NCBI GenBank assembly: GCA_020723855.1
Contig: DYIB01000025.1
Coordinates: 1 to 32,673 of the forward strand
Length of the DNA stretch: 32,673 nucleotides
Source: Uliginosibacterium gangwonense
Lineage (GTDB): Bacteria > Pseudomonadota > Gammaproteobacteria > Burkholderiales > Rhodocyclaceae
Direction of reading: 5' to 3'
Under the pieces are notes generated by a model. The model worked only from the letters and a program-made list of their open reading frames with translations, made no database searches and was not told the origin of the DNA. This document shows, in pieces, positions 7,941-24,920 of this stretch. Every line of letters starts with the position of its first letter. Positions within the stretch are counted from its first letter, which is position 1. The translations under genes were made by a program, and so were the position numbers.

Positions 7941-8812
7941 GTCGTAATCCCTTCTTCATCAGGGCATCGATTCTGTCAGCACGGCCTTCGATATATCATG
8001 CATATCGTGGTCGTAATCCCTTCTTCATCAGGGCATCGGTTCTGTCCATCGACGAGACGGGCATGAAGCCTGGGTTCGTGTCGTAATCCCTTCTTCATCA
8101 GGGCATCGGTTCTGTCCATTGAGGCGGCCGAAGAAATGGCCCGGCTGAGTCGTAATCCCTTCTTCATCAGGGCATCGGTTCTGTCGAAGGGAGGTGGGTA
8201 TATGCCGTCTCCCAGGAAGTCGTAATCCCTTCTTCATCAGGGCATCGGTTCTGTCGTTCGTTCTCGGGGCATCGGACCCCGAAATGGCCGTCGTAATCCC
8301 TTCTTCATCAGGGCATCGGTTCTGTCGAGGCGGGGCAGGGAATCTCCGCCGCCGATGCGTGTCGTAATCCCTTCTTCATCAGGGCATCGGTTCTGTCCCG
8401 CCGGCCGACTACGTGGCGGCCTCTTCTATGTCGTAATCCCTTCTTCATCAGGGCATCGGTTCTGTCTTCAATGTCATCGACATTCAATGACGACTTCTCG
8501 TCGTAATCCCTTCTTCATCAGGGCATCGGTTCTGTCGAAGAGAATACGCACCTGGGCGCACCCTTCCGGTCGTAATCCCTTCTTCATCAGGGCATCGGTT
8601 CTGTCGAAGCCGCCCAAGAAGAGGCGGCCCACGAGGCGTCGTAATCCCTTCTTCATCAGGGCATCGGTTCTGTCGTACAGGGTGTTCTTGGCCAGGCCTA
8701 ATTCAGGTCGTAATCCCTTCTTCATCAGGGCATCGGTTCTGTCGCTGTGCGTGCTCAGAAGAGCAACACAGGAGAGTCGTAATCCCTTCTTCATCAGGGC
8801 ATCGGTTCTGTC
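7941..8812 (-). CRISPR. CRISPR array, 13 repeats of 37 bp and 12 spacers
   Basis: Repeats start at 7941, 8010, 8080, 8149, 8219, 8290, 8361, 8430, 8500, 8569, 8638, 8707 and 8776. On the plus strand each begins GTCGTAATCC and ends GGGCATCGGTTCTGTC; spacers are 32-34 bp and all different. Only the repeat at 7941 is altered (A instead of G at repeat position 30). In the reverse orientation the repeat ends ATTACGAC, an 8-base tail of the kind left as the 5' handle of type III crRNAs after Cas6 cleavage. The degenerate repeat at the left end and the cas genes at the right end agree that the leader is on the right and transcription is on the minus strand. The repeat can form a short CCCT/AGGG stem. 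Confidence 0.97.
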
Positions 8813-8931
8813 CGCACCTTCAGGATTCCATCGCAAAAACAGTACCATAGACGGCTGATTGACATGCTACGACGATGGCTCGCGAGTCGAATCTCATGAA
8901 CAGGCGTACCGGATAGGCCAACTCAATCATA
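8813..8931 (-). promoter_or_regulatory. Probable CRISPR leader
   Basis: The 119 bases between the second cas2 gene and the cas-proximal repeat carry no gene and are visibly richer in A and T than the surrounding coding DNA. From the array orientation this should hold the crRNA promoter and the Cas1-Cas2 integration signal. No clear -35/-10 pair was recognised, so the array may also be read through from the cas operon. Confidence 0.6.
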
Positions 8932-9255
8932 TCAAGCGTGGAAAGCACGTAACAACCCGTCCAGGACGGGGCTGCGGGTCGACAACAGGTGGCTGTCGGC
9001 CGGCAGGCTGCCGCGGCCGAGGGTGTCGAACTGGGGCGTCTGGGGGAGCTGGTAGGCCCGGACGTCGTCCTCGTCCGGACGGATAAGCTGCTCGATCTGT
9101 TGCATGAGGCGGCCGATCTGCGCGTCGCTGCCTTCGAAGAGAAACACCGAGTACTGGACGGGGACCGCACGCTTCTTCAGAAAACGGTGCACTCGCGACA
9201 GTCTTCTGGGGTCGGCAATATCGTAGGTGATAAGCCAGGCCCTCGGCGCGTTCAT
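8932..9255 (-). CDS. Second Cas2-family protein (Cas2')
   Basis: A 107-residue Cas2-fold protein: WLITYDIADPRRLSRVHRF is the first strand and helix with the conserved aspartate pair region, and VPVQYSVFLFEG is the next strand. Cas2 dimers bridge two Cas1 dimers in the spacer-integration complex. The ATG at 9255 overlaps the stop of the preceding cas1-like gene (ATGA); a GTG at 9261 would add two residues. It is the last protein-coding gene before the leader and array. It is clearly divergent from the Cas2 encoded at 11056-11340, so the island has two different Cas2 proteins. Confidence 0.88.
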   Translation of the reverse strand: MNAPRAWLITYDIADPRRLSRVHRFLKKRAVPVQYSVFLFEGSDAQIGRLMQQIEQLIRPDEDDVRAYQLPQTPQFDTLGRGSLPADSHLLSTRSPVLDGLLRAFHA

Positions 9256-10055
9256 GGCCACGTTTCGTTCTCCCGCGCGAGGTGGCGTTTCAGGTCGGCC
9301 AAATGGGCACTGAGCCGCTCTTCGCGGCGGCGCGCCCAGGTTTCGAAGATCAGCATCAGCGTGCGATCCGCCGGGGCCCCGGCGGGGAGCGAGCCGCAGT
9401 CCAGGTTAAGTTCGGCCCACAACAGGTTGGCAAGCTGGTCGGCCAGTTCCAGCGGCTGGCCATCGTAGCCCCAGTAGCGCGCCTGCAGGCCTTGCAGATG
9501 AAGATGACGCACGACCAGGGCGTGGCACCAGCCGCGCCCTTCCGCCGCGAAGACTTCGGGGAACTCGCCGTTGTAGACGTACGCGCGCTTCATCTGTTGA
9601 AACGCTTCGGCGTCGGGCGCGCGGTCCTCGCGGGCGCTGCGCAGCGCCCAGGCCGTGAGGGTTTCTAGGCGCCGGCGGCGAATCCAGTTGTCGAAGCGTA
9701 CGGTCCAGTCCGGCAGCTCCAGATAGCTCTCGAGAGAGGCGGTCATCGGGCTGGCGACAGCGACCCGGGGCAGCGCGCTGCCCACCGCTTCGCTTTTCCC
9801 GTCCAGCCATATCAGCGGGATGCCATGGGCCAAGCAGGCGGCGAGTGCGGCGCCGCTCCAGTCGGCATGGCGATTGCACACGATGCGGTCGACGCGCGCC
9901 AGCGGAAAACGCTCCACCGGGGCCCCCGCCCGGCGCAGTATGAGGTGGTTGCCGTCCGCGTCGATGCGCATGGCGTTGCGGGTGGCCAGGTACAGCGGCT
10001 TGCGCGGCAGCGCGCCACGCGTCGCCGCAAAGCGGTTGGGCGCTGCGGCGGCCAT
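9252..10055 (-). CDS. Degenerate second Cas1-like protein (Cas1')
   Basis: A 267-residue protein with a Cas1-like N-terminal beta domain (about 18-95: KPLYLATRNAMRIDADG, GAALAACLAHGIPLIWLDG) and a shortened helical domain. Its segment 189-216 (GLQARYWGYDG...LADQLANLL) aligns with the Cas1 segment GLDPLLGFYH...LASDLIEP. The metal-binding histidine is lost, the second acidic residue is replaced by Ala209, only Asp206 remains, and no GLEG-type glutamate motif is present. It is therefore probably not an active integrase by itself. The ATG at 10055 lies two bases after the canonical cas1 stop, and the gene overlaps cas2' by four bases. A structural subunit of a mixed Cas1 complex is one hypothesis; the family assignment is by pattern only. 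Confidence 0.72.
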   Translation of the reverse strand: MAAAAPNRFAATRGALPRKPLYLATRNAMRIDADGNHLILRRAGAPVERFPLARVDRIVCNRHADWSGAALAACLAHGIPLIWLDGKSEAVGSALPRVAVASPMTASLESYLELPDWTVRFDNWIRRRRLETLTAWALRSAREDRAPDAEAFQQMKRAYVYNGEFPEVFAAEGRGWCHALVVRHLHLQGLQARYWGYDGQPLELADQLANLLWAELNLDCGSLPAGAPADRTLMLIFETWARRREERLSAHLADLKRHLARENETWP

Positions 10056-10057
10056 GC

Positions 10058-11050
10058 TCAGAACATCTCCTCCTCGTCGGCGACCAGCCATGCCTTGCCC
10101 TCTGCGCGCAGGCCAGCGGCCAGCCGCGCGCAGCGCCGGCGCAGCCAGCGACGCGGCATGGCGGCGAAGCGTTCCCAGTCGGCATAGAAGCGCCCGCGCC
10201 CTGCCTTGCCCAGCAGGCAGGCGCCCTTGTCGGCGGCGAAGTGCTCTTCCCGCAGGGTGCGCGCAGCGAACATGTTCCACACCCACTCGTCGGCCAGCGG
10301 ACGCAGCGGCTCGATGAGGTCCGAGGCGAGCGACTCCCGGCCGAAGGCCGGGCGGTGATAGAAGCCGAGCAGCGGATCGAGCCCGGCGATATGGGCGGCG
10401 CGCACCGCGTCGAAGTGGAGCAGCGTATAGGCTAGCGACAGGCACGCGTTGACCGGATCGCGCGGCGGGCGGCGGTTGCGCCCGGAGAACTTCAGCGCCG
10501 GCGGAAACAGTGCCGCGTAGCCCTGGAAATAGGCGCGGGCGGCGCTGCCTTCGAGTCCGCGCAGCGTCGCTGTGGAGGTCTCGCCCACCCCCGCCGCCGG
10601 CGCGATCTGGGCGGCGATACGCTCCAGGGTGGTGCAGGCATCGAAGATCGCCTTGCGCTGATCCGGCCGGCGCTGCCCGGCTGCAACCAGCAGGCGATGC
10701 TGGCGACGCACCTTGGCACTCACCAGCTGGCGCGCCCACTCGGCACAGAAAGCGTCGTCGGTTACCCTGCGCCCCTGGGCAAGGCGCACCGCCGCATCGT
10801 TGTGCGCCGGACCCAGTACGATGGCAACGCGCCGGCTCGCGCGCGGGCTGAGAAGCAGGGTGCCGGCGCCGGCCTCGGCCAGCTTCAGCAGCACACCCGA
10901 GTCGAGGCGCGTGCGCGCGCCCTGGATGACCACCCGCTCCAGCAGCTTCAGCGGCACCGTGCCGCTGCGGCTGCCCTGCTCGTAAAGAGCGAGGGCGTCA
11001 CCGTCGGCGCGGATCTCCAGTTCGGCCCGATCGAGCAACAGTGTGGCCAT
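10058..11050 (-). CDS. cas1: CRISPR integrase Cas1 (canonical)
   Basis: A 330-residue Cas1. The N-terminal beta domain spans about 1-85. The helical domain contains the catalytic metal ligands Glu167 (in GLEGSAARAYFQG), His232 (in GFYHRP), and Asp244 and Glu247 (in LASDLIEPLRP), so the nuclease/integrase site is intact. Cas1 with Cas2 inserts new spacers at the leader end of the array. It is encoded five bases after cas2 and directly before the degenerate cas1 copy. There is no reverse-transcriptase or Cas6 domain fused to it, unlike some type III Cas1 proteins. Confidence 0.95.
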   Translation of the reverse strand: MATLLLDRAELEIRADGDALALYEQGSRSGTVPLKLLERVVIQGARTRLDSGVLLKLAEAGAGTLLLSPRASRRVAIVLGPAHNDAAVRLAQGRRVTDDAFCAEWARQLVSAKVRRQHRLLVAAGQRRPDQRKAIFDACTTLERIAAQIAPAAGVGETSTATLRGLEGSAARAYFQGYAALFPPALKFSGRNRRPPRDPVNACLSLAYTLLHFDAVRAAHIAGLDPLLGFYHRPAFGRESLASDLIEPLRPLADEWVWNMFAARTLREEHFAADKGACLLGKAGRGRFYADWERFAAMPRRWLRRRCARLAAGLRAEGKAWLVADEEEMF

Positions 11051-11055
11051 ATCTT

Positions 11056-11340
11056 CTACCCCACGTAGAAGTAATCCGGATCGGCGGGCCGCAGCGCGAT
11101 GCCCAGCGCATAGCTGCGGGCGCGGGAATCGAGGCGCAGGAGGAAGAAGCGGTCTTCCTCCTCGTCGAGGATGAGGGCCATCTCGTGGAGCAGCTCGTCC
11201 TTCTCCGCCGTCGAGAGAAACACCTCGTGCACCGACTTCTGCCCGCCGGTGGCATAGCCACGCACCAGATGGAGCGCCGCGGCGAGGCGCCGGTCTTCGG
11301 AGATGTCGTAGGCGGCAAGGTAGAAGTCGCGCTGGCTCAT
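11056..11340 (-). CDS. cas2: CRISPR adaptation protein Cas2 (first copy)
   Basis: A 94-residue Cas2: FYLAAYDISEDRRLAAAL carries the first beta strand and its conserved aspartate, and GGQKSVHEVFLS is the following strand. The ATG at 11340 is preferred over the longer open frame because the fold begins there. It starts the adaptation block cas2-cas1-cas1'-cas2'. A one-mismatch copy of the GGCAAGCTTGCC palindrome lies 64 bp upstream at 11404-11415, consistent with a separate promoter for the adaptation genes. Confidence 0.9.
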   Translation of the reverse strand: MSQRDFYLAAYDISEDRRLAAALHLVRGYATGGQKSVHEVFLSTAEKDELLHEMALILDEEEDRFFLLRLDSRARSYALGIALRPADPDYFYVG

Positions 11341-11403: not shown

Positions 11404-11415
11404 GGCAAGCTTGTC
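11404..11415. promoter_or_regulatory. Palindromic candidate operator, copy 1 (one mismatch)
   Basis: GGCAAGCTTGTC, one base off the GGCAAGCTTGCC palindrome. Its centre is about 70 bp upstream of the cas2 start, and it overlaps the stop codon of the lipoprotein gene. See the other copies at 11944, 24140 and 26121. Confidence 0.5.
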
Positions 11416-11987: not shown

Positions 11988-13124
11988 CTAGCCGCCGGGC
12001 ATCATCCAGTTGCGGAGATGATCTCCAAGGTTGCGCAGCTGGCCACCTTCGATGATCTTGATACCAAGGTCTTTTGCCCGTTGCCGGTCCGCGTGCTTCA
12101 GTGTTTGAAAACTTACGATCGCCCCGCGCGTGTTGAGCCCCCCGAGTGCCGCCAGCGAGTCGAGCTTGTAGAGCATCTCTGCTCCGGGGCCCTCTTCCCC
12201 TTGCCCGTTTAGGTACTTGGTCTTGCATTCGATAAGAAAAAGCCGGTTGGCCACCAGCAATGCGACATCGATCTCGTTTCGCGCTTTGCCCGGTGATTCC
12301 ACTTTTAGGCTCCGGGCGACGTCCTGAATATGGCTCGAATCCGGGAGATCCGAAACTACTCCAGCCACATAAACCTCGAGCCAGCCGCCATTGGCAAAAA
12401 AGCGCGCATTCTCGTCCAGAAAAACGATCTCGTCGCCGCTTACCTTGGCAAGCCCATAACGGTCGAGCTTGGCGAGTAGCTCCCGCACACGCTCGGCGTC
12501 GTCCGAACGACCCACCAGTCGCGCCCTAAGACTTCCCTTAGCTTGGTGCGCCAGAGAATTGAGTGCACGCAGCGGCTTCGCAAAGCGCTCAACATCCTTG
12601 ATGAATTCCTCGCACAGAATGTGGAGCCTTGCCGGGAACTCGCGCGTATCCCGCCCAAGTTCGCGGTATCCGTGAATGGAGAGATAATCCGGCAGCTTGA
12701 CCCGCTCTTCGATTACGAAGCGCTCGTCGTCCGAGAAGAGGGGAACGATCTCGTTGCGCTCCGGGTGCACGTAGAAGACCGGCTTGCGTGCCTCCCTGAA
12801 TACATCCTGCGCTGCGATGGCCATCAGCTTCGTGCCACCCGTGACGTTGAGGGCGACACTCTTGCCATCGCACTTGAGCAGGACGTCCAGAATTTCTTCC
12901 TGGGTTCTTGTCACGCTCCATGGGTCGCTGATCGGTCTGGACCAGGCCGCGATCCCCCGTTGTTTAAGGACGGTCTCGAGCCAGCGCGCCCGTTCCTGCA
13001 TGTCCACACTGACAAGAAGGATCACCTCCTTGGGCCGGAAGCGGCTATCCAGAGCCGGGATGAAGTTGGGCGTAGCCTGCGCTGAGACAAGGCAGATGTG
13101 GGTGTCGTAGCGAGGTATGGTCAT
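11988..13124 (-). CDS. can2: CARF-nuclease effector of the Can2/Card1 family
   Basis: A 378-residue protein. The N-terminal CARF domain (about 1-150) has NVTGGTKLMA at 93-102, the ligand-binding loop typical of cyclic-oligoadenylate sensors. The C-terminal PD-(D/E)xK nuclease domain has Glu250 in GGWLEVYV, Glu284/Asp286 in NEIDV, and Glu299-Cys-Lys301 in LFLIECKT, so the catalytic set is complete. Can2/Card1 enzymes are activated by cyclic tetra-adenylate and degrade RNA and nicked or single-stranded DNA. Here the activator would be made by Cmr2. The start overlaps the csx16 stop by four bases, implying co-translation with its probable off-switch. The gene is visibly less GC-rich than its neighbours. 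Confidence 0.88.
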   Translation of the reverse strand: MTIPRYDTHICLVSAQATPNFIPALDSRFRPKEVILLVSVDMQERARWLETVLKQRGIAAWSRPISDPWSVTRTQEEILDVLLKCDGKSVALNVTGGTKLMAIAAQDVFREARKPVFYVHPERNEIVPLFSDDERFVIEERVKLPDYLSIHGYRELGRDTREFPARLHILCEEFIKDVERFAKPLRALNSLAHQAKGSLRARLVGRSDDAERVRELLAKLDRYGLAKVSGDEIVFLDENARFFANGGWLEVYVAGVVSDLPDSSHIQDVARSLKVESPGKARNEIDVALLVANRLFLIECKTKYLNGQGEEGPGAEMLYKLDSLAALGGLNTRGAIVSFQTLKHADRQRAKDLGIKIIEGGQLRNLGDHLRNWMMPGG

Positions 13125-13486
13125 GGCAGCGGCCTGTCGGAATTATGGGTCGTGTCAAATGCACTTGAAATGAACTCTGTCGTGCCTCCCGCCCGATCAA
13201 CCCGGCGCACGACATAGGTCTCCAGGCGTGCCCCGTGACGCTCCAGATCGGCCGCAGAAAGTTCCCGCCCCCGGGAATCCGGCGGAAGATCGAGCGAGAG
13301 GTTGCAGTAACGGGCGCCCCGCGCGCAGATCTCGGCGGCAAGGTGGATGGGCAAGGTGCCGATCACCGTATCACCCGGCCGGATCTCGGACGGGTCCAGA
13401 TGGGCCACGAAACGATCGACAGCGAGCCCTTGGCGCGCCGCCCACTCGATGGCGCCGGGGTGCCGCGAAACGAAGAACGTTGTCAT
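13121..13486 (-). CDS. csx16: CRISPR-associated protein Csx16 (VVA1548 family)
   Basis: A 121-residue protein starting MTTFFVSRHPGAIEWAARQG, the characteristic N-terminus of the Csx16/VVA1548 family, followed by VDRFVAHLDP, GDTVIGTLPIHLAAEIC and a C-terminal YCNLSLDLPPDSRGREL. To my recollection recent work places Csx16 among the ring nucleases that degrade cyclic tetra-adenylate and end the type III alarm. It is coupled by four-base overlaps both to cas6 upstream and to the Can2-type effector downstream, fitting an effector/off-switch pair. Confidence 0.85.
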   Translation of the reverse strand: MTTFFVSRHPGAIEWAARQGLAVDRFVAHLDPSEIRPGDTVIGTLPIHLAAEICARGARYCNLSLDLPPDSRGRELSAADLERHGARLETYVVRRVDRAGGTTEFISSAFDTTHNSDRPLP

Positions 13487-14475
13487 GCGGCCAGGAACGA
13501 GACGGTATAGCGCCCCATGCCCATGGTCGCGTTCTTGCCCGCGTGTATCCACTGGCCCAGCCATAACCAGGCGGCGAGCCCGCGCAGATCGCCCTCCAGG
13601 ATCCACTCCCCGACCACGCCGCCCAGCGTCATCTCCGCCTGCTGCCGGGAGGAGTAGCGGGTCCAGTCGTGCCAGCGCAGGTTGCGCGCGTCGCCCAGCG
13701 TCTCGGCCTGGCGGGCGAGGGCCGGCGCATCGGCGGCGACGCCTGGCAGTCCGGCATGCAGATCGAACAGGAGCGAGGCGCGGCGCATGAGGGTGGTGAG
13801 GAGTTTCCGCGGGCCGATCGCTTCGGGTCCCAGCGGATGTCCCTGGGACTGCAGGCGTAGCGGCGTTGTGATGGTGAGGCGGGCCTGGCGCGCGCCATCG
13901 AGAGCGGGAACGACCAGGCCGGGCGCATGCGGCCGTATGCAGCCGCGCTCGCCGTCCCACACCGAGACCGGGGCGACCTCGTCTTCCCATACGATATCTT
14001 CCAGCCCCCCCTGGATGCGCTTCTTGCCCAGTCCGTGGCCGAAGGCGCGCTGCAGGGCGTAGGCGATGAGAGGCAGGCGATCGAGTGCATGGCCCACCAG
14101 AACCAGCCCGAACTCGAAAGGGGTGTGGGTCGTGATCCTGCGCGTGCCGATCGGGGGAGGCTCGATCACGTAAGGGTTGGGCACCTGACTGAACTTCTGC
14201 AGGGCATGGGCCGGCGGCGCCGGGGTCTCGAAGATCGCCGGGTAGGGGCAGGTGCGCAGCAGCGGGCAGCCGGAGCAGGCCTTCGCCCCCGTCATGCACG
14301 CCACGCGGCGCAGCGCGGCGCCGAACTGGCCGCGCAGCAGCGACCCCGCGTATTCCGGCAGGGCGAGGTCGCCTTCCATGCGAAAGCGGAAGCGGTACCG
14401 GGCCACGGCCAAGCTCTGGCCGGGGCAGAGCGTGTGGCCGCCGCCGGCAATGACCGGGGTGTCGGCGTATCCCAT
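13483..14475 (-). CDS. cas6: CRISPR RNA-processing endoribonuclease Cas6
   Basis: A 330-residue RAMP-fold Cas6 with the C-terminal domain of PF10040. The N-terminus AVARYRFRFRMEGDLALPEY precedes YAGSLLRGQFGAALRR. A cysteine cluster at Cys60, Cys67, Cys70 and Cys76 is common in this group. Near the C-terminus HAGKNATMGMGRYTV is the glycine-rich RAMP loop. It would cut the array transcript within each repeat, leaving an 8-base tag. The ATG at 14475 lies one base after the truncated HEPN gene and the end overlaps csx16. A relic of a second cas6 lies at 15209-15352. Confidence 0.92.
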   Translation of the reverse strand: MGYADTPVIAGGGHTLCPGQSLAVARYRFRFRMEGDLALPEYAGSLLRGQFGAALRRVACMTGAKACSGCPLLRTCPYPAIFETPAPPAHALQKFSQVPNPYVIEPPPIGTRRITTHTPFEFGLVLVGHALDRLPLIAYALQRAFGHGLGKKRIQGGLEDIVWEDEVAPVSVWDGERGCIRPHAPGLVVPALDGARQARLTITTPLRLQSQGHPLGPEAIGPRKLLTTLMRRASLLFDLHAGLPGVAADAPALARQAETLGDARNLRWHDWTRYSSRQQAEMTLGGVVGEWILEGDLRGLAAWLWLGQWIHAGKNATMGMGRYTVSFLAA

Positions 14476-14476: not shown

Positions 14477-14689
14477 TCAGGAATCTCCGGACAGGGCGGG
14501 CGGAATTCGATCTCTGGCCCACGCTACAACGCCGCGCAGCAGCGCCTTCAAGGATTTCTCCACTGCCTGCTGGGCATGGAAACCCACCACGGAATCGCCG
14601 ATGCCCGGCGTCTGTGCGAGGACGGCACATGCATGGAGATCCTGCTCGGCCGCGTCCAGCAGCATCCGGGCCACGCTGCGCTCAGCCAT
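14477..14689 (-). pseudogene. Truncated HEPN-domain gene
   Basis: A 70-residue product from the ATG at 14689: MAERSVARMLLDAAEQDLH, then VGFHAQQAVEKSLKALLRGV. This is the N-terminal helix pair of a PF05168-type HEPN protein. Complete members have about 120-130 residues; the second half is absent and is replaced by a short tail (ARDRIPPALSGDS). No Rx4-6H ribonuclease motif remains, so it is probably inactive. It overlaps the nucleotidyltransferase gene by eight bases and ends one base before cas6. Confidence 0.75.
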
Positions 14690-15411: not shown

Positions 15412-17028
15412 TCAGCTCCCCGGGCTTTCGAGCGTGGCGATGGCATCGTTCAGCCGCTGCTTGCTTTCCTTGTTGCTCGGCATGCCCCAAGCCTTGTTCA
15501 TCGTCTCCCGCAGCAGTTTCGCGGCTTCGGCCCGGCTGCGCGGCTCCGTCCATGCGAGGGCGAGCTTCATAAACTCGATACGCTTCTGGTCGAACAGGCA
15601 GCCGGGCTTGTACGCGCTCTTGCGCGCTTTCTCGAACTCGTCGCGAAAAGATTTGATGTGGCGGAGGTTGTCTTCCCACGCCAGATCTTCGGGTGACAGA
15701 CTGCGGCGGCGCGCCTCCTCGGCCTCCCGGGCAGCGCGCTCCCGTGCGCGAAGTTCCGCTCCAGCGCGCCGGTCCTCGGCCTCAGGATCGTGAGCCAATG
15801 CCCCGTAACCCACTGCGGTCTTGGCCCCGAAGCCGAGCCAGTCGCGGGCGTACTCGAAGGCGGCATCAAGTAGCGCCTTCCAGTCACCGATCGCCCGCCA
15901 CAGGGCTTCGCGGCCGAGCAGAGGGCGGGCAGCGAAGGTGAAGCGCGCGCCCGGCGCGACGGTGAGGAAGAATACCGGCACCGGGTTTTCCGCATCGTGG
16001 GGGGTGGCCTGGCGGCCATTTACCGTCTTGGCCTCGTAGTAGTCTTTGTGGTGGGGGTTGAGGATGTCCACCGCCATCGTGGCCTTCGCATCGGGAAAGG
16101 CATCCTGTACGGCGAGCAATCCCTCCCAGTGGATGGCGCGGCGCAGGCCATCGGTCCGAGCGGCGAAGGCAGCGAGGACTTCCGCCGAGGCAAGATCCCG
16201 CGACTCGCGCGGAAGCTGGTCACGGATGGCAGTGAGCCAGGCATCAAGGACGGTATCGCCCCGCTCCCGCACCCGCTCCACCCAACCTGCATAGGCATAG
16301 CACCACCTTTGTGCGTTGTCGTCGCCCTTGAAGCAGCCGCTGTTCTCGTCGAAACCGAACAGCGCCCAGACGTGAGCCATGGACCATGCCGAATCGGCAT
16401 CGAAGAGCGCCAGCTCCTCCGCCGCCCGCCGCAGCACCCCTTTGATGCCGGAGCCGGCGAGATACGGTACGCCATAGGGCGAGAGGAAGGCGAAGCCGTT
16501 TTCCACCGGGTGCGGGTTGCCCAGGCCGGTGGCGAGCGGCGCGATGAGTTCCGCGTCGCGGCGCCAGTCGTCGGGGCCGCGCAGGGCATCGGCCCGGGCG
16601 GCGAGGGCGGAGAGCAGGTCGGCGGCGACCTTGCCCATGCCGGCAGCGGCCTGAAGGGCGACGCGTTTCTGGTTCTTGAGCGGAACCCAGCGCTCGGTGG
16701 TGCGCGGCTGGTTCCTGCCGAGGGTCTCCCAGTCAGCGCGTTCGGCGGCATCACGCAGTCGGTTTCGCGCCTCCCGATCCTCCGGGGCATCCACTTCGCC
16801 TTTGTCCGCCATGCCGTGGAAATAGATCTGGAAGCGGTGGCCAGGCGGAATGTCCTGCCATGTCCGGCAGGATTGCAGCGTGTGGTAATCGCCGAGAACG
16901 GCAGTGATATACCCCGGCGCGGCCCGGCGAGGGATTTCGAAACGAATCGGCTGTGCGCTGCCACCACGCCACTGGTGTGGCCGTTGCTCACCCCGACCGG
17001 GGCGTTGTCCCTGACGTCCGTTGGACAT
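15412..17028 (-). CDS. cmr6: Long RAMP protein Cmr6 of the type III-B complex
   Basis: A 538-residue RAMP protein. Landmarks are PYLAGSGIKGVLRR (188-201), the DILNPHHKDYY segment (321-331) and GFGAKTAVGYG (399-409), the pattern and order of Cmr6 backbone subunits. It is much longer than a usual Cmr6 (roughly 250-350): about 120 extra residues at the N-terminus and a charged, probably coiled-coil and helical, C-terminal extension (415-538, rich in Arg, Glu and Ala). Cmr6 caps the Cmr4 filament near Cmr1 in the crRNA-guided complex. The ATG at 17028 follows AGGAAAAAAGAC. A related family (TIGR03986) is the alternative assignment; operon position favours Cmr6. Confidence 0.85.
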   Translation of the reverse strand: MSNGRQGQRPGRGEQRPHQWRGGSAQPIRFEIPRRAAPGYITAVLGDYHTLQSCRTWQDIPPGHRFQIYFHGMADKGEVDAPEDREARNRLRDAAERADWETLGRNQPRTTERWVPLKNQKRVALQAAAGMGKVAADLLSALAARADALRGPDDWRRDAELIAPLATGLGNPHPVENGFAFLSPYGVPYLAGSGIKGVLRRAAEELALFDADSAWSMAHVWALFGFDENSGCFKGDDNAQRWCYAYAGWVERVRERGDTVLDAWLTAIRDQLPRESRDLASAEVLAAFAARTDGLRRAIHWEGLLAVQDAFPDAKATMAVDILNPHHKDYYEAKTVNGRQATPHDAENPVPVFFLTVAPGARFTFAARPLLGREALWRAIGDWKALLDAAFEYARDWLGFGAKTAVGYGALAHDPEAEDRRAGAELRARERAAREAEEARRRSLSPEDLAWEDNLRHIKSFRDEFEKARKSAYKPGCLFDQKRIEFMKLALAWTEPRSRAEAAKLLRETMNKAWGMPSNKESKQRLNDAIATLESPGS

Positions 17029-17039
17029 GTCTTTTTTCC

Positions 17040-17414
17040 TCAGAGCGTGTCGGCGAGCTGGCGGATCCAGCGCAGGATGGCCTGGGTTTCCTCGGTGGCG
17101 CGCTGGTATTCGAGAGTGGTTCTCTCCGGTGCCACACACCAGTTCATGACCCCCTCGAAGCCGACCTGTTGACCGGGAATGACCCCCGCCTCGCGCAGCC
17201 ATTCGAGGATGTGAGTGAGCAGTCGGTCATGCTCGTTACGACTGCGGTTGTCCGCCTTGCCCTTAAGGAAGGCGAGCGTCTGCATCAGACCGTTGGTCAT
17301 CACCAGCGCCGGCAGGCTCTTGGCAAGGTTGCGGTACTTCTCGCGGACACTCTGATCCACGGCCTTCACCCGTGCCCACGCGAACTCCGCCCGAATCTGG
17401 TCAAGCGTGCGCAT
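17040..17414 (-). CDS. cmr5: Type III-B small subunit Cmr5
   Basis: A 124-residue helical protein matching Cmr5: MRTLDQIRAEFAWARVKAV at the start, then YRNLAKSLPALVMTNGLMQT, and an end rich in helix (ATEETQAILRWIRQLADTL). Cmr5 lines the middle of the Cmr complex next to the crRNA-target duplex. The ATG at 17414 lies inside the end of cmr4 (14-base overlap), and cmr6 begins 11 bases after its stop. Confidence 0.92.
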   Translation of the reverse strand: MRTLDQIRAEFAWARVKAVDQSVREKYRNLAKSLPALVMTNGLMQTLAFLKGKADNRSRNEHDRLLTHILEWLREAGVIPGQQVGFEGVMNWCVAPERTTLEYQRATEETQAILRWIRQLADTL

Positions 17415-18339
17415 CGCCGCCTCCCACGAAGTTGACGATCACCTGCCCGCGCCCTGTGGTCGCATCGCCGCCGATCTGCACTGGCCTGCCGCTGAAGGTG
17501 TCGGTGAGAGATTTCAGAATGACCTCGGCGGTCTCCTTGCCGTCGCCGATGTCGCCCTTCCGGCGCCGCTCCTGGCTCGCCATGGCGAGACTCACCATGA
17601 GGGACTCGGGCGGCAGGTTCTCGGTGAAGAAAAGCCCGCCGTCGTCGGCGGTGCCGGAGACGTCGTCGATGCGCACGTGGGGCTCGACAAGGGTGCTGTT
17701 CCTCACGAAGAAGGCGAGCTGGGTGTCGGAGAGCAGAACCAGGTGCTTCTCGAGCTTGTTGCGGAAGAAAGTGTGGCCGTCACCGTCGGGCAAGGCGTTG
17801 GCGGCGAGCCAGCGTGCGACTTCCTTCAGTCCACCATTGTCAGTCAGGGAGTCGAAAGCATAGCTCTCCAGGATCAGGCGGTTCTGGGCGAGGAGATTGT
17901 CCGCCAACACGACGGCCTGGGTGTCAGAGGGACCGGGAAGCCCGTCGGCGGGAAAATCCCTGGCCCTGGCGATGACCGCCAGCCGCCCGAGCCGCGCGAG
18001 CGCCCCTGGACTGGTGGCGTACACATAGCCCTCCCTGAGGCTCCTCACCGGAAAGGCGACGAGCTGGGCATCGGCGAAGCTGGCCGCGCCCGCGTGCTCG
18101 GAGGCGTTGGTTTCAGGGCCAAATACCGCTTTCACGTTGATCTTGGGCTTGCCTTCTGGGTCCTTGAGACCTTCCGCCTCGTGGCGCAGCGCCCCCTTGA
18201 TGCCCGAGCCGGCGAACACGGGATGGCCGGTGTGCACCTCGCGCTGGATCGGGTTGTCGATGACGCCGAGCGCGGTACCGGCGCCCATGTGCACCGGCGT
18301 GACGGCGTAGAGGAACATCAGTTTCTTGGCAGTGAACAT
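17401..18339 (-). CDS. cmr4: Type III-B backbone RNase Cmr4
   Basis: A 312-residue RAMP protein. The segment GVIDNPIQREVHTGHPVF carries Asp28, equivalent to the catalytic Asp26 of Pyrococcus Cmr4 that cuts target RNA every six nucleotides. AGSGIKGALRHE and GGDATTGRGQV are the RAMP glycine-rich loops. Several copies form the filament along the crRNA. It begins at the base after the cmr3 stop codon and overlaps cmr5. The active site appears intact. Confidence 0.95.
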   Translation of the reverse strand: MFTAKKLMFLYAVTPVHMGAGTALGVIDNPIQREVHTGHPVFAGSGIKGALRHEAEGLKDPEGKPKINVKAVFGPETNASEHAGAASFADAQLVAFPVRSLREGYVYATSPGALARLGRLAVIARARDFPADGLPGPSDTQAVVLADNLLAQNRLILESYAFDSLTDNGGLKEVARWLAANALPDGDGHTFFRNKLEKHLVLLSDTQLAFFVRNSTLVEPHVRIDDVSGTADDGGLFFTENLPPESLMVSLAMASQERRRKGDIGDGKETAEVILKSLTDTFSGRPVQIGGDATTGRGQVIVNFVGGGDAHA

Positions 18340-19476
18340 TCAGATCTCCTCGGGTTGCCAGGCGCCGAACCAGACGCGGTTGTAACCTTCGCGCCGGCGG
18401 GCAGCGTTTTCAGGATTGTCTTCCATGAGCGGCCACAGGCCGGCCTCCCGCAAGCTGGCCAGTGCCGCAGTGTCGCCTCCGGTCACGCGGAACCAGTAGC
18501 AGCTACCCATGGGTGCCGCCTTGCGGGCTGGCTTGGGAGCATGGTTCGCCAAGTCCCAGCCCGAAATGACCTCGTGGCGCGGCACGCTTGCCGCCACCAA
18601 TTCGGCGGTCAGTCCCTCGATCTCGAAGCGGCGGGTGACCGGGTCCACGCCCGGCGGCAGCCAGCCGCCGGAAAACAATCCCGGCGTGGCGAGGATCATG
18701 CGATAGCCCTTCCAGCCGGACTGTGGACATCCCAGCCCTGCGAGCACATGGGCAAGTCCGGGACCCGCCGGTTCAATACGTGCTCCCCGACCATCGCCGC
18801 CCAACCTGACCAGGCCGTCCTGGGGCAGCCCCTTCCCGGAAAAATCGGCCACGAAGCGCACGCCGGGCCGCAGCGCCACGGCATCGGTGGTGTAGATCTG
18901 GCTCTCGGCGGCGGTGCGGGATCCCGCATCCAAGGCGATTCCCAAACGGGGGGCAGTCTCCCACAGGCAGCCAGAAGCCACCAGGCAGGACGAGTCCGGT
19001 TCGCGGCCGGCCAGATGCTCGGCGAGTCCCGCAGCGGTGATCCATTGGCCGCTCATTGGCTTTCTGCGGCTCGGGGTTGCGAGCACCGGCAACGCGGGCA
19101 AGTCGCTGCTTGCCGCCACCACACCGGCAACACCTTCGCCCAGCGTTCGCGGCGAAAGAGGAACGAGATCTGGCCCTTCCAGCGCCACCAGATCGGCGGG
19201 TAGCGGAAAGAGCGCCTCGTCACCGCGCGCCAGGGCGAGCGCGGTGAGGGCGTAGTCCGCACCGAGAGTCTCGGCGAGGATGGCCTCGGCCCGGTCGGGC
19301 CCGCGTGTGATGTCGTCCACCCGACCGGCGTCGGCGAGCGAACGGGAAGCCAACGCGCCGGCGAACACGGAGGGCCAGGGCGGCATGAGGGATTCGCCGT
19401 GGACCCCACCGCCGAACAGACGGTTGCCGCGGGGCATGAGCAGATCGATCGGATCGAAGGTGAGCGTCCTGGTCAT
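18340..19476 (-). CDS. cmr3: Type III-B subunit Cmr3
   Basis: A 378-residue RAMP protein with a Cmr3-type start (FDPIDLLMPRGNRLFGGG) and the large middle insertions usual for Cmr3. The C-terminal MGSCYWFRVTGGD segment is also characteristic. Cmr3 pairs with Cmr2 and holds the 5' tag of the crRNA. The ATG at 19476 overlaps the hepT stop by four bases, so its translation is coupled to the toxin gene inserted between cmr2 and cmr3. Confidence 0.92.
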   Translation of the reverse strand: MTRTLTFDPIDLLMPRGNRLFGGGVHGESLMPPWPSVFAGALASRSLADAGRVDDITRGPDRAEAILAETLGADYALTALALARGDEALFPLPADLVALEGPDLVPLSPRTLGEGVAGVVAASSDLPALPVLATPSRRKPMSGQWITAAGLAEHLAGREPDSSCLVASGCLWETAPRLGIALDAGSRTAAESQIYTTDAVALRPGVRFVADFSGKGLPQDGLVRLGGDGRGARIEPAGPGLAHVLAGLGCPQSGWKGYRMILATPGLFSGGWLPPGVDPVTRRFEIEGLTAELVAASVPRHEVISGWDLANHAPKPARKAAPMGSCYWFRVTGGDTAALASLREAGLWPLMEDNPENAARRREGYNRVWFGAWQPEEI

Positions 19477-19835: not shown

Positions 19836-20116
19836 AGCGGCTGAGCCTCCTTGAGGACGATGTCGCGCACGGCAGGGTTAAGGCCCCCGTCGGTAACGAC
19901 ATCGACCTTTCTTCCGGTAAGGTCCTGCACATCCATCAGCAGTCCGCCCAAGGCCAGGCCGCTCACTTCCGGCGGAAGCGTAACCAGCAGGTCTACATCG
20001 CTATTCTCGTCCGCGTCGCCGCGCGCCATAGAGCCGAAGACGCGGACATTGGTAAGCCCGTATCGCCGAGCGATGTCGAGAATGGCTTGGCGGTGGGTTT
20101 CGATCAGGGGATGCAT
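19832..20116 (-). CDS. mntA: MntA-type nucleotidyltransferase antitoxin inside the cmr operon
   Basis: A 94-residue minimal nucleotidyltransferase with GSMARGDADENSDVDLLV: Gly28-Ser29 and Asp40/Asp42 form an exact GSx10DxD signature. MntA neutralises HepT by transferring AMP to its active-site tyrosine. Its ATG shares one base with the cmr2 stop codon (TGATG) and it overlaps hepT by four bases. The gene lies where Cmr operons normally go straight from cmr2 to cmr3. Confidence 0.92.
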   Translation of the reverse strand: MHPLIETHRQAILDIARRYGLTNVRVFGSMARGDADENSDVDLLVTLPPEVSGLALGGLLMDVQDLTGRKVDVVTDGGLNPAVRDIVLKEAQPL

Positions 20117-23010
20117 CAGTCGTCCTCCTTTCCGTTACCGATTCTTCCCTCGCGAGCAAGGAATTCGGCGCTAAGCAGCAAGTCGCGCAGCCAGCGGTTG
20201 GGACCGGGCCATTCGGGCTCGCCGCGGTTCGCCGGGCGCCCGTCGGCGGCGCGGGCAAGACGCCTGGCAAGCTGAACCGGGTCAAGATACCCAGTCGTGC
20301 CTTGGCGGCCGAAACGGTAGGCCAAGGCAGCGGCGAGAGCATCTCCTGAAGCCGGCAGGTCGCGCAGGGACTCGGCGAGCAGGTAGGCGGCACGCCGCGA
20401 CACCTGCCGGGCGATGAGGTCGCGCAGCTCGAGCAGCAGTCCCATGTCGCCGTCCATGCCAGCATCGAGTCGCCACTTGCCCACTAAGTTCGTGGCACCG
20501 CCGGCGCGCTTGGTCAGGGTGAGACAAAAGGCATCCCGCCCGCCCTCACCCTTGGCGCGTTTTTCCGCCTCGCGCAGGTCGGCCAGCACCCGCGCGAGCG
20601 GCGCCTGGTGGTGGGCAATGACGGCGCCCATGGAAGCGGTCGCCCCGTCCCCCATGAGGCGAAACATGCGCGTTACGTTCCGGCCATCGTGCCGGTCCGT
20701 CAGCACAGCGAAACCATTGCTGATGCGCAGTCGTTCCTGACTCTCGCCGGTAACCCGCTGCCAGAAGGCATCCTCCTCCACTCCTTCCGGCAGCACGCCG
20801 GAATAGGCGCAACGCAGGGCCAGCATGAGCCCGGGCAGGTCGTGCACCGCTACCATGGCCATCAGGTCGTCGCCGCCGGCGTAGATGAGCTTGCCCATGA
20901 ACAGGTCTTCCACCACCACGCGGGCGAGATGGAGTGCGAAGCCGTTGAGCGCAGTGGAAATGGCCTGGTGGCGGGCGGGCGAAGCGGGCCGGTCGGCAGC
21001 GAGGTAATCCGCGAATCGGCCTTCGCGCCGCAAGGCGGCCAACGTGCCCTCATGGAAGCGCCGTTCCATTTTCTGGCGGCCTTCGGTGCCAGCGAGCCAG
21101 GCACCGAGCCGGTCCCCGTCCATGAGCACCAAGGCGTAATAGGTTTCGGCCTTGCCGCCGAGGAAGGTGTCGATCTGCTCTTGAACACGCTGGACGGAGC
21201 GGTTGTCGGTCTCCTCGCCCGCCATGGCGTCCGCCAGCGCGGGCAGACCCTTCAGGAATCGGATGTCTGCGGGTCGCCGCTGCGCAATCTCGCGGTAGAG
21301 CTTGCGCGGCAGCGCGGCGCCTTTGACGCCCTCCGCTTGGGATCGCAACGGGGGGTCCGGAGTTCTCGCTTCCGGGTCATGCAGCCAGTTGCGGATTGAA
21401 GTGGACATCGCAACCGACCGGGTGGACAGCACGAAACGGTCGAGCTTGTCGATACCTCCGACCGCACTTTCCGTCTCCTTCACGAACAATCGCGGCCAGG
21501 CGCGCTTGAGGGCGCACACGCTGCACAGGTGCTCGCCTTCCTTGGCGAGCGCCGGCTTGTTCTTCGCTACCACCGTCCAGAGCGATTTTTCCTTGCGCTC
21601 GCCTGAAGGCTTGTCGAGCAGCGTCGCGTCATCGGTGAGCCATTCCCGCTCGCCGCACAAGGTGCACCGGTAGCCGCTCTCGACCTGGCCGTCGAAGAGC
21701 CTGGCCGCCTTGGCAGCGGCGTGGAGCCGCTCCAGGGCCTCAAACAGGCCAGGGTAGGCGATGCCGGGATTCGGTGCGAAGAACGAATGGCCTTCGAGCA
21801 TGATCTCGCCGCGCAGCAGGCCGTCGAGTTGGCGGTCGAGGTAATTGGCGTCCGCCCCCACCCGGGCGAGAAGATCCTTGAGTTTGCCGTCGTCCAGCTC
21901 GATTTCCCCAGCCAAATGCCAGGGAACGACTGCCCAGTGCACCTCGGGGAAATGGGCGAACTGACGCTCAATCTGCGCCTCGGCGGGAGCGGCTTCCAAG
22001 CGGCGAGCGGCTTGAAGCAGCTCATCGAGCGCCGCCCGGGCTTGATCCTTCGCCCAACGGCGCACCGCAGCTGCGATCTCGCGCGCCAGGGCTGGCGCCT
22101 GCCCCGCAGGCACCAGCGCGACGAAGCGGTTGGGCAGCGCCGCGGCGAAGAGGGGGTTGGTGTCGTCCTCCTTCTCGGCCCAAGGCTGCGGCACGCCGTC
22201 GGGCCATTCACCCAATTGGTCCTTCACCCACAGGTCGGCCACCGCCACGCCGTGCAGGTCGGGGAAGAGCACCGCGTCGGGTCCGAAGCGCTCGCACACC
22301 ATCCGCATGGCTTCCCAGGCGATGCGGGAGAGCAGGTGCGAGCCTGCCCACAGGTCGGAGATGCTGCGGGCCTGGGCGATGAAGCCCTGCACCGGGCCGA
22401 AACTCATGAGCAGCAGCGCCGGCCCGGATCGGTCGGCCGCCATCGGGCCGGCGAAGGCGGAGCTGAGCTTGAGGTGCTCCCAGATGGTGTGATCCGGGCT
22501 TCGGGTGTCGGCGGGCAGCAGGCTCCACAGCACGCCCAGGTCCCTCGCGGGGGTTTCGGGACCGAATCGCCAGAGCTTGAGAAAGGTGCGTTTCCAGTCT
22601 ATGGGCCCATCCGCTCCTTCCTCGCGGACGACGAGGTCCTTGAAATGAGCGAAGCTCACCTCCTCGACCGCCTCCGGGTGGGCATCGCTCGCAAGTTCCA
22701 GGAGACGGAAAAGTTGGCCGGTGAGCGGGTGGATGATCTGCGGATCCTTGGCGAATACCACCTTGCCGGACAGGTTCATTGGCAGGCTCGGGCGGTCGGC
22801 GGCAGCGGCCCAGCGATCACCGGTCCTGACGGCCTCTTTGAGCCCTTCGGCCTCGCGGTACGCCCGCGCGAGGTCGTCGCCGAGCAAGGCCTTCATGTCC
22901 GCCACAGTGCCGGCCTCGTGGCTTTTGCCGCGCAGCAGGATCAGCGCCTTTTCCGCCGGGTCGTGGAGGTAGGCGAGGACCTTCGCCTGCCACATCACTC
23001 GTTCGTTCAT
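20116..23010 (-). CDS. cmr2: Type III-B signalling subunit Cmr2 (Cas10)
   Basis: A 964-residue Cas10. The N-terminal HD domain has His16-Asp17 in AYLHDPAEKAL, the DNase site. Zinc-binding pairs CTLCGEREW and CSVCALKRAWPRLF lie in the middle. The Palm domain GGDD is at residues 712-715 (LIYAGGDDLMAMV), with ASMGAVIAHH after it. With GGDD intact the enzyme should make cyclic oligoadenylate when the complex binds target RNA, feeding the CARF proteins encoded nearby. The ATG at 23010 follows AAGGA, ten bases after cmr1. Confidence 0.96.
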   Translation of the reverse strand: MNERVMWQAKVLAYLHDPAEKALILLRGKSHEAGTVADMKALLGDDLARAYREAEGLKEAVRTGDRWAAAADRPSLPMNLSGKVVFAKDPQIIHPLTGQLFRLLELASDAHPEAVEEVSFAHFKDLVVREEGADGPIDWKRTFLKLWRFGPETPARDLGVLWSLLPADTRSPDHTIWEHLKLSSAFAGPMAADRSGPALLLMSFGPVQGFIAQARSISDLWAGSHLLSRIAWEAMRMVCERFGPDAVLFPDLHGVAVADLWVKDQLGEWPDGVPQPWAEKEDDTNPLFAAALPNRFVALVPAGQAPALAREIAAAVRRWAKDQARAALDELLQAARRLEAAPAEAQIERQFAHFPEVHWAVVPWHLAGEIELDDGKLKDLLARVGADANYLDRQLDGLLRGEIMLEGHSFFAPNPGIAYPGLFEALERLHAAAKAARLFDGQVESGYRCTLCGEREWLTDDATLLDKPSGERKEKSLWTVVAKNKPALAKEGEHLCSVCALKRAWPRLFVKETESAVGGIDKLDRFVLSTRSVAMSTSIRNWLHDPEARTPDPPLRSQAEGVKGAALPRKLYREIAQRRPADIRFLKGLPALADAMAGEETDNRSVQRVQEQIDTFLGGKAETYYALVLMDGDRLGAWLAGTEGRQKMERRFHEGTLAALRREGRFADYLAADRPASPARHQAISTALNGFALHLARVVVEDLFMGKLIYAGGDDLMAMVAVHDLPGLMLALRCAYSGVLPEGVEEDAFWQRVTGESQERLRISNGFAVLTDRHDGRNVTRMFRLMGDGATASMGAVIAHHQAPLARVLADLREAEKRAKGEGGRDAFCLTLTKRAGGATNLVGKWRLDAGMDGDMGLLLELRDLIARQVSRRAAYLLAESLRDLPASGDALAAALAYRFGRQGTTGYLDPVQLARRLARAADGRPANRGEPEWPGPNRWLRDLLLSAEFLAREGRIGNGKEDD

Positions 23011-23020: not shown

Positions 23021-24082
23021 TCAAGGGAGACGGGTGAGCTTGTCGTTCAGAACGGCATGGACGCCGCTCCATACTTGCTGCTCGCGGGCATTCAGACCGG
23101 GTCGATCAGCAGAAGACAGCCGTCGCACCAGCGGTTCGGGCAGACTGTGTGGCAGATGGGCTACCAGACCGACATAGCCGCCGCTCGTCGGAAAGACCTT
23201 GAACAGCACCTGATTCGCCGAGCGTGCATCTCCCCAGGCATCGAGCGGGTGGTTGGTGACGGGGTATGACAACAGCTGGCGATCGCACAATGTGGAGTGC
23301 CGGCCACCGCCCTTGAAATGGAACTGGGTGCGGAAGGCGATCTTCACCTCGGCGAGTGTCATGAGCACGTCCTCCCACTTCTGCATCGCTTCCGTCCGCC
23401 ACAGCAACAGGCCTGCATCGTCCTTTCCAAGAGCGTGGCACCAGTCGGTATCGAGTGCATCCTTCCAGCCGCGCGAAAAGCGTCGCAACCAGTCGCGGCC
23501 GGCCCGGTTGGCAGGGTCGAACAGTGCTGTCAGCTCCTCGGCGCTGAGCCCGCCTTGCTCGAAGTGCAGCGAGCCCCAGCCGTTGCGGCAGCGCGAGCCG
23601 AGCGCGCCGAACAAGTGAACGAGTCTGATCACCTCCTCGAAGCGGGGTGCCTCCGCCGCGGGAAAACCGAGGGAGAGTTTTCGGCTTTCCCCGGCAGGGA
23701 TGTAGGTCTCGCGTTTAAGCGTACCGCCCACGTCCACCGGTCCGTAGCCCAGGTACAGATCGGCGCCGGGTTTATGGGTCACTTCCGGATGGGATATTGG
23801 GGCCAGCCCCTTCCACCGTGCTTTGGGCGCGGTTCCGCCCCGCCAATCCAGCCTCAGCTTCACCCGGCTGGCCGTGGTGCCCTCGTCGGCCGCTTGGCCA
23901 AAGAGTTCGCCTTCCCGCCGACGGATGTCGGCGGTGACGGGCCGCTGGCCCGCCGTTTCCGCCACCCGCCACCACTGCCGCAGCAGCGCCTTGAACGGCG
24001 GCGTGCGCCACTGGCCGTTCTGCTCGGCGTTGCCGAGGAAGGCCGGGGTCGTGAAGCTCAGCTTGTACGCCGGTTGTTTCAC
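23021..24082 (-). CDS. cmr1: Type III-B subunit Cmr1
   Basis: A 353-residue RAMP protein with the Cmr1 signature TPAFLGNAEQNGQWR near residue 12 and FKALLRQWWR after it. HLFGALGSRCRNGWGSLHF is the glycine-rich loop. Cmr1 sits at the 3' end of the crRNA and helps capture target RNA. The start is GTG at 24082 with GGGAGG six bases upstream. The candidate operator at 24139-24152 is about 60 bp upstream, within the end of the DUF2130 gene, and TTAAGAT follows at a distance that could serve as a -10. Confidence 0.93.
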   Translation of the reverse strand: MKQPAYKLSFTTPAFLGNAEQNGQWRTPPFKALLRQWWRVAETAGQRPVTADIRRREGELFGQAADEGTTASRVKLRLDWRGGTAPKARWKGLAPISHPEVTHKPGADLYLGYGPVDVGGTLKRETYIPAGESRKLSLGFPAAEAPRFEEVIRLVHLFGALGSRCRNGWGSLHFEQGGLSAEELTALFDPANRAGRDWLRRFSRGWKDALDTDWCHALGKDDAGLLLWRTEAMQKWEDVLMTLAEVKIAFRTQFHFKGGGRHSTLCDRQLLSYPVTNHPLDAWGDARSANQVLFKVFPTSGGYVGLVAHLPHSLPEPLVRRLSSADRPGLNAREQQVWSGVHAVLNDKLTRLP

Positions 24083-24123
24083 GGGATCCTCCCTGAAGTC
24101 GTGCGAATTCTGATCTTAATGGC

Positions 24124-24908: not shown

Positions 24909-24920
24909 AACGGTTTCCTT

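What the first reader, a model, noticed from the sequence alone, without database searches (positions are those of the whole stretch)
8932..11340. Duplicated adaptation module cas2-cas1-cas1'-cas2' with a catalytically degenerate second Cas1
Seen: two different Cas2-fold proteins (94 and 107 residues) flank a canonical Cas1 (Glu167, His232, Asp244, Glu247 intact) and a 267-residue Cas1-like protein. The latter keeps the beta domain and the GL-LAD-L segment, but has lost the histidine, has Ala209 in place of the second acidic residue, and lacks the GLEG motif. All four genes overlap or nearly touch. Known: a standard module has one cas1 and one cas2, and Cas1 works as a dimer of dimers bridged by Cas2. 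Inference: this may form a mixed Cas1/Cas1'-Cas2/Cas2' complex with an asymmetric integrase, for example setting spacer orientation or size. I do not know of a published description of this arrangement.
Basis: partly seen in the sequence, partly recalled or inferred. Interest (0 to 1): 0.78.

Follow-up and report, generated by a model that had tools for sequence, protein, structure and literature searches.

The report
Four-gene CRISPR adaptation module, inactive Cas1
Next to a type III CRISPR immune system, this bacterium carries a conserved set of four memory-writing genes, two different Cas2 genes around one working Cas1 and one Cas1 that has lost its active site, which suggests a spacer-integrating machine built from unlike halves instead of identical ones.

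Summary
Confirmed. Minus-strand genes cas2a-cas1-cas1'-cas2b (11340-8932) lie between a type III-B (Cmr) operon and its CRISPR array. Cas1' is a true Cas1 homologue (profile-profile E 3e-18; AlphaFold2 pLDDT 92.7, Z 18.8 to solved Cas1) that lacks the segment with the catalytic glutamate and has lost the other catalytic residues. The arrangement is widespread: 67 of 80 fetched loci have the same four genes in order; 20 of 24 class-sample genomes with this Cas2a have Cas1'. Cas1' is under purifying selection and its divergence follows Cas1 and Cas2a, hardly the effector. PADLOC already holds the family as "Cas1, diverged variant, second in the loci"; my ten paper searches found no description of the module. 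Best reading: Cas1' is a dedicated non-catalytic partner of Cas1 on a mixed Cas2a/Cas2b core. The complex is untested. Against strict need, five modules with intact cas1 lack cas1' but keep both Cas2 genes. Spacer lengths there look unchanged, so a role in spacer size is not supported.

The parts
11056..11340 (-). cas2a, first Cas2, 94 aa, motif GGQKSVHEV (family GGQKSVxEC)
   Evidence: (PF09827 37.4 bits)
10058..11050 (-). cas1, canonical integrase, 330 aa, E167/H232/D244/E247 intact
   Evidence: (PF01867 E 1.8e-68)
9252..10055 (-). cas1', diverged non-catalytic Cas1, 267 aa
   Evidence: (PDLC01185 E 3e-96)
8932..9255 (-). cas2b, second Cas2, 107 aa from ATG (GTG start possible at 9261)
   Evidence: (PF09827 62.9 bits)
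8813..8931 (.). presumed leader between cas2b and the array
   Evidence: side inferred from repeat orientation and from the changed repeat at the far end (7941)
7941..8812 (-). CRISPR array, 13 repeats of 37 nt, 12 spacers of 32-34 nt
11988..13124 (-). Card1-like CARF nuclease
   Evidence: Card1_endonuc E 2.2e-30
13121..13483 (-). csx16 (Cas_VVA1548), C-terminal part of a longer open frame; start approximate
13483..14475 (-). cas6
   Evidence: PF10040 E 4.1e-14
15412..17202 (-). cmr6 (596-aa frame; true start may lie inside)
17040..17414 (-). cmr5
17401..18339 (-). cmr4
18340..19476 (-). cmr3
20116..23010 (-). cas10/cmr2
23021..24082 (-). RAMP protein, probably cmr1
   Evidence: RAMPs E 7.4e-7; the name cmr1 is inferred from position

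Best explanation
The four genes encode one spacer-integration machine for a type III CRISPR system. Cas1 is the only catalytic subunit. Cas1' is a Cas1-fold subunit whose active-site helix and basic loop have been deleted. It most likely pairs with Cas1 through the conserved N-terminal beta domain and fills the non-catalytic position of each Cas1 dimer, the position that contacts Cas2 in the E. coli complex. Cas2a and Cas2b most likely form a mixed Cas2 core. The result would be an integrase with built-in asymmetry, in which a division of labour that other systems reach with identical Cas1 copies is fixed in the genes. Shown here: homology, predicted fold, loss of catalytic residues, conserved linkage, purifying selection, shared divergence. 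Inferred: pairing, stoichiometry, position in the complex and any effect on spacer orientation.
For: Cas1' against Cas1 profiles: prob 99.0, E 3.1e-18 over residues 18-267 against 1-322. AF2 model pLDDT 92.7, pTM 0.89; the 50 best entries listed are Cas1 or the related casposase, best Z 18.8 over 234 residues at rmsd 3.4, Foldseek E 1.9e-9. E167, H232 and D244 in 95 of 95 distinct module Cas1, E247 in 93 of 95 (D in 2). In the 90 distinct Cas1' the segment with E167 is deleted; the D244 position keeps D in 65 of 90, but the H position has H in 5 of 90 and the E247 position E in 7 of 90. Four-gene order in 67 of 80 loci. All 30 loci with Cas1' from the profile survey, the window's own included, have canonical Cas1 beside it. 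Cas1' dN/dS 0.09-0.35 in 14 computable of 17 pairs (13 of 16 distinct). On the same 15 loci, distance correlation Cas1-Cas1' 0.68, Cas2a-Cas1' 0.58, Cas1'-effector genes 0.00-0.22, effector genes among themselves 0.76-0.89. In E. coli only one Cas1 of each dimer is catalytic and the other (Cas1b) contacts Cas2 (PMC10011333, passages); helix 7 and loop 7 of the Megasphaera Cas1a' read the PAM (PMC10284694, passages). That this is the element lost in Cas1' is my mapping, not a tool result.
Against: No complex was predicted or measured. Five modules with intact cas1 lack cas1' (L070, L098, L115, L150, and Aeromonas plasmid pMC64A = L130), all keeping both Cas2 genes; in the genomes of L070, L098 and L115 every other match is a canonical Cas1. 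So Cas1' is not strictly needed, or its loss can be compensated. Cas2b follows the other genes less tightly (Cas1-Cas2b 0.27, Mantel p 0.06; Cas1'-Cas2b 0.34, p 0.006), and Cas1 itself is not fully free of the effector (0.19-0.33, p 0.06-0.17; Cas1'-Cmr6 0.22, p 0.05). The idea that the Cas1' model sits in a non-catalytic conformation failed its control.
Confidence: 0.58

Rival explanations
1. Cas1' is an accessory DNA-binding or prespacer-handling protein derived from Cas1 that docks transiently on the integrase (as Cas4, Csn2 or exonucleases do elsewhere) instead of replacing a Cas1 subunit.
For: Repeated loss of cas1' while cas1, cas2a and cas2b stay fits an accessory factor. Its sequence is more diverged than Cas1's (identity to the window protein 15-57% in A2; 39-73% in A3).
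Against: The whole Cas1 fold is kept, the N-terminal beta domain best of all, and its distances follow those of Cas1 most closely (0.68).
Confidence: 0.2
2. Cas1' is a regulator: by forming inactive mixed dimers it damps spacer acquisition and limits self-targeting.
For: Catalytically dead paralogue encoded directly after cas1; dispensable in some lineages.
Against: Nothing measured; a mere brake does not explain the second Cas2, which stays when Cas1' is lost.
Confidence: 0.12
3. Two separate complexes, Cas1-Cas2a and Cas1'-Cas2b, with Cas1'-Cas2b doing something other than integration.
For: Gene order cas2a-cas1 / cas1'-cas2b; Cas2b follows Cas1 weakly (0.27).
Against: Both Cas2 genes remain when Cas1' is gone, and Cas1' follows Cas1 and Cas2a more closely than Cas2b.
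Confidence: 0.07
4. Cas1' is a decaying duplicate with no function.
For: All catalytic residues lost in the window copy; frameshifted in L112; reduced to a short relic in L150.
Against: Open frame in 69 of 76 loci where it can be judged, dN/dS 0.09-0.35, own conserved residues such as P51 in 90 of 90, W124 in 85 of 90, C74 in 83 of 90, confident fold.
Confidence: 0.03

Closest known systems
PADLOC-DB PDLC01185, 'Cas1, diverged variant, second in the loci'
   Same: Same protein family: Cas1' residues 22-267 match positions 1-245 of 246, E 3e-96.
   Different: The profile only names the protein; the entry as shown says nothing of function, of the second Cas2 or of the fixed four-gene order.
Canonical Cas1-Cas2 integrase (E. 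coli type I-E; P. aeruginosa I-F Cas1-2/3)
   Same: Same folds, cas1 and cas2 side by side, array beside the genes; in E. coli too only one Cas1 per dimer is catalytic (PMC10011333, passages).
   Different: There the Cas1 dimers and the Cas2 dimer are homodimers, in a C2-symmetric heterohexamer (PMC12259127, passages, for I-F); here two unlike genes exist for each.
Type III-B (Cmr) CRISPR loci with Card1, Csx16 and CARF effectors
   Same: Effector genes, Cas6, Card1, Csx16 and array of the window.
   Different: Ordinary III-B adaptation modules have one cas1 (or RT-cas1) and one cas2 (general knowledge; the plasmid of Gloeothece, NC_014534, is an example). The four-gene module also occurs near a Csm-type (III-A) Cas10 in L055.
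Three-gene cas2-cas1-cas2 modules (Aeromonas media pMC64A, Sphaerotilus pSna507_unt13)
   Same: Same Cas1 clade and both Cas2 types.
   Different: No cas1'; by the quick Cas1 trees these are losses, not the ancestral state (Aeromonas placed at support 91, on a long branch).

Membership tests
Cas1 superfamily (PF01867) | Profile match over the curated cut-off | tested here: met
   Cas1' 34.1 bits, cut-off 22.3, N-terminal domain; full length by profile-profile comparison
Cas1 superfamily (PF01867) | N-terminal beta domain plus C-terminal helical domain fold | tested here: met
   predicted model
Catalytic Cas1 integrase | Conserved Glu, His, Asp, Glu/Asp active-site residues | tested here: not met
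   Cas1': Glu segment deleted, D198/G199, Q207, N210. The neighbouring Cas1 has all four
Catalytic Cas1 integrase | Integrates prespacers with Cas2 | not testable with these tools
   needs biochemistry
PDLC01185 diverged second Cas1 | Profile match, second cas1 in the locus | tested here: met
   E 3e-96, profile 1-245 of 246
Cas2 (PF09827), both genes | Profile match over cut-off | tested here: met
   37.4 and 62.9 bits, cut-off 23.8; cas2a falls below NCBIfam's Cas2 cut-off (21.5 against 24.5)
Heteromeric Cas1/Cas1'-Cas2a/Cas2b integrase (proposed) | The four proteins occur in one complex | not testable with these tools
   only single chains could be predicted
Type III-B CRISPR-Cas | cas10/cmr2, cmr1, cmr3-cmr6 operon | tested here: met
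   (cmr1 by RAMP match and position only)

The most novel reading that the evidence does not exclude
A spacer integrase asymmetric by construction: Cas1-Cas1' heterodimers, one active and one dead subunit, on a Cas2a-Cas2b heterodimer, so that the two prespacer ends are told apart by the protein itself and spacers enter in the orientation that an RNA-targeting type III system needs.
Probability: 0.3. Interest if true: 0.85.

Novelty: new variant of a known kind. Interest (0 to 1): 0.62.

Why it matters
An integrase of identical halves must still put spacers in the right way round. For type I-E this is explained by delayed trimming of the PAM end (PMC10011333, passages); for type III systems, which need crRNAs antisense to transcripts, it is much less clear (general knowledge). 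A natural module in which active and inactive Cas1, and two Cas2s, are separate genes would let each half be mutated alone. It occurs in named strains of Thauera, Thiothrix, Ectothiorhodospira, Rhodoferax and Thioalkalivibrio and has natural versions without Cas1' for comparison.

Tried and rejected
Conformation argument: Cas1' matches some chains of a Cas1 entry better than others, which looked like a preference for the non-catalytic state. In the two entries where both lists show both kinds of chain (4xtk, 4wj0) the canonical Cas1 of the same module prefers the same chains, so I dropped it. The E. coli complexes are not among the chains listed for canonical Cas1 and could not be compared.

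First hhalign run (E 4e-42) was inflated by canonical Cas1 rows among the Cas1' sequences; repeated without six rows (L070, L076, L091, L098, L115, L116) (E 3e-18).

Spacer-size role: 53 spacers beside four loci without cas1' (L070, L098, L115, L116) average 33.5 nt (s.d. 1.3), against 33.3 (s.d. 1.6) for 881 spacers of the other arrays. 35 of the 53 are from L116, whose genome holds an intact module elsewhere, so only 18 are clean; 5 spacers of the decayed L091 stand among the 881. Not supported, on few cases.

Orientation role: arrays of the window, L084 and L111 against phages gave one matching spacer (L111); the other arrays were not tried.

Plasmid and phage records: no relative of Cas1' by tblastn with the window protein. 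Plasmid search with Cas2a gave five records; three were opened.

Weak hits of PDLC01185 (L025-L030, L037; E 1.3e-5 or worse) are ordinary Cas1 and were not counted.

The careful Cas1 tree did not finish; only quick trees are used.

Known lean: the Cas2a alignment behind searches was built from Cas2a genes standing in Cas1' modules, so both searches favour such modules and the share of modules without Cas1' is a lower bound. 214 of 294 relatives were not fetched.

Papers: ten searches of open-licence PubMed Central. Passages found by search terms were read in PMC3150331, PMC12669027, PMC9048733, PMC5513706 (no passage found), PMC6452270, PMC12259127, PMC10011333 and PMC10284694; none of the passages described the module; of other papers only listings were seen. 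Supplementary files could not be searched. Two papers that I thought likeliest to list the family (recalled) were not held.
Full report
What is there. On the minus strand of the window four open frames follow each other at 5 and 2 bases, then overlap by 4: cas2a (11340-11056), cas1 (11050-10058), cas1' (10055-9252), cas2b (9255-8932). Upstream lie Card1, Csx16, Cas6, Cmr6, Cmr5, Cmr4, Cmr3, Cas10/Cmr2 and a RAMP that is probably Cmr1. Downstream, after 119 bases, lies a 13-repeat CRISPR array in the same orientation. The window belongs to an incomplete genome (155 contigs, 84% complete), which holds one more canonical Cas1 elsewhere.

Cas1' is a Cas1. Pfam sees only its N-terminal domain and NCBIfam gives matches below its cut-offs, while PADLOC's PDLC01185, 'Cas1, diverged variant, second in the loci', covers residues 22-267 at E 3e-96. 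A clean profile of 98 Cas1' against 103 module Cas1 gives prob 99.0, E 3.1e-18 over the full length. AlphaFold2 on 69 sequences gives pLDDT 92.7, pTM 0.89; the listed PDB matches are Cas1 proteins or the related casposase (best Z 18.8, 234 residues, rmsd 3.4, 14% identity).

It is not catalytic, by sequence. In the module Cas1, E167, H232 and D244 are present in 95 of 95 distinct sequences and E247 in 93 of 95 (D in the other 2). In 90 distinct Cas1' the D244 position keeps D in 65, but H is found in 5 and E (for E247) in 7, and the stretch with E167 is missing (eight near-duplicate loci shared by the two surveys were removed). A GxEG pattern occurs once in 98, near an N-terminus, outside the place it should hold. 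Comparing the two models, Cas1' lacks the helix 160-179 with E167, the loop after it, and the small hairpin 271-280. In the window copy all four positions are lost.

It is conserved. Sorting the 37 loci left 30 with true Cas1' (own included), each beside canonical Cas1 on the same strand; the other seven were ordinary Cas1. A search of genome contigs with the distinctive Cas2a matched 302 stretches, 294 of them relatives; the best 80 were fetched, so 214 were not seen. Of the 80, 67 have cas2a-cas1-cas1'-cas2b, 2 more end after cas1' at the contig end, 1 has a frameshifted cas1' (L112), 4 are cut before cas1', 3 are cas2a-cas1-cas2b, and 3 are decayed (L089, L091, L116). Of the 67, L065 has a frameshift in cas1 and L045 no standard start codon near the usual start of cas1'; other loci were not checked one by one. 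By record title they span Beta-, Gamma- and Alphaproteobacteria, Acidobacteria, Nitrospirae and a Clostridiales bin. In the class sample of 369 genomes, 24 had this Cas2a at E 6e-21 or better (the next genome stands at 2e-15): 20 of these have Cas1', 1 is cut by the contig end, and 3 lack it: one with a short relic of the cas1' start (L150) and two with broken cas1 (L154, L155). The Cas2a profile itself came from Cas1' modules, which favours such modules in both counts.

It is under selection and belongs to the unit. dN/dS (NG86) of Cas1' is 0.09-0.35 in the 14 computable of 17 pairs (one pair is the same pair of genomes twice, so 13 of 16 distinct, and some share a sequence), against 0.06-0.28 for Cas1. 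On the same 15 loci, distances correlate 0.68 for Cas1-Cas1', 0.58 for Cas2a-Cas1' and 0.57 for Cas2a-Cas1; Cas2b joins less tightly (0.48, 0.34 and 0.27 with Cas2a, Cas1' and Cas1). Cas1' against four effector proteins gives 0.00-0.22, Cas1 0.19-0.33, while effector proteins among themselves give 0.76-0.89. So the adaptation genes seem to travel apart from the effector. In line with that, L055 (with Cas1') and L115 (without) lie near Csm-type Cas10.

Losses. L070, L098 and L115 keep cas2a, cas1 and cas2b but have no cas1' in the gap; every other match in their genomes is a canonical Cas1. An Aeromonas media plasmid has the same three-gene set, and L150 a relic. On the quick Cas1 trees the rows of L070, L098, L115 and Aeromonas lie apart inside the four-gene clade, so they look like separate losses (several forks of low support, some long branches). 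L116 and L112 lie in genomes with a second, intact four-gene module. Cas1' is therefore useful but not strictly needed; the pair of Cas2s is the more constant feature.

How it most likely works. In E. coli, two asymmetric Cas1 dimers flank a Cas2 dimer, only one Cas1 of each dimer catalyses integration, and Cas1b and Cas1b' make the contact with Cas2 (PMC10011333, passages read). In Megasphaera, helix 7 and loop 7 of Cas1a' read the PAM and the tail of Cas1b' caps it (PMC10284694, passages read). The segment deleted in Cas1' appears to be this helix and loop (my mapping, from the place of the catalytic Glu, partly recalled). A protein that keeps the fold but drops what the non-catalytic subunit does not use is what a dedicated Cas1b would look like. 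The second Cas2 would then break the symmetry of the core. Pairing and position are inference.

Novelty. The family is in a public profile library, so it was noticed by others. In the open-licence papers searched (ten searches, listed under Tried and rejected) I found no account of a module with two Cas1 and two Cas2 genes or of its function; titles, starts of abstracts and passages of eight papers were seen, not whole texts. I rate it a new variant of a known kind.

Noticed in passing
window 19473-20116 (-): A HepT-like / nucleotidyltransferase (MNT) toxin-antitoxin-like pair sits between cmr2 and cmr3, inside the effector operon.
   Followed up: no
window 14477-14993 (-) and 14317-14409 / 15254-15346: A second, shortened HEPN/MNT pair lies between cas6 and what looks like a duplicated 5' piece of cas6 (93 nt, 80% identical).
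   Followed up: partly
window 1-53 and 15162-15214: A 53-nt repeat, 98% identical, at the contig end and inside the Cmr operon; perhaps the end of a mobile element.
   Followed up: no
window 11414-11875 (-): A short lipoprotein-like frame between card1 and cas2a is ended by a TAG at 11794-11792, with an open continuation to 11414; a pseudogene or an assembly error.
   Followed up: no
window 23772-26120 (-): A Cas_NE0113 protein (24921-26120) and a DUF2130 protein (23772-24908) stand at the upstream end of the Cmr operon.
   Followed up: no
L111 12867-16907: One spacer (34 nt, exact) matches Pseudomonas phages phiH1, phiH2 and PA_LZ02, and PaMx28 over 33 nt.
   Followed up: no
L129 (Sphaerotilus plasmid NZ_CP035707): A three-gene cas2-cas1-cas2 set lies beside BREX genes (pglW, pglX) on a plasmid.
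   Followed up: no
L038-L117 arrays: Most repeats beside these modules are 36-37 nt with a CCCTGA...AAGGGATTAAGAC end, and 881 spacers average 33.3 nt with s.d. 1.6.
   Followed up: partly
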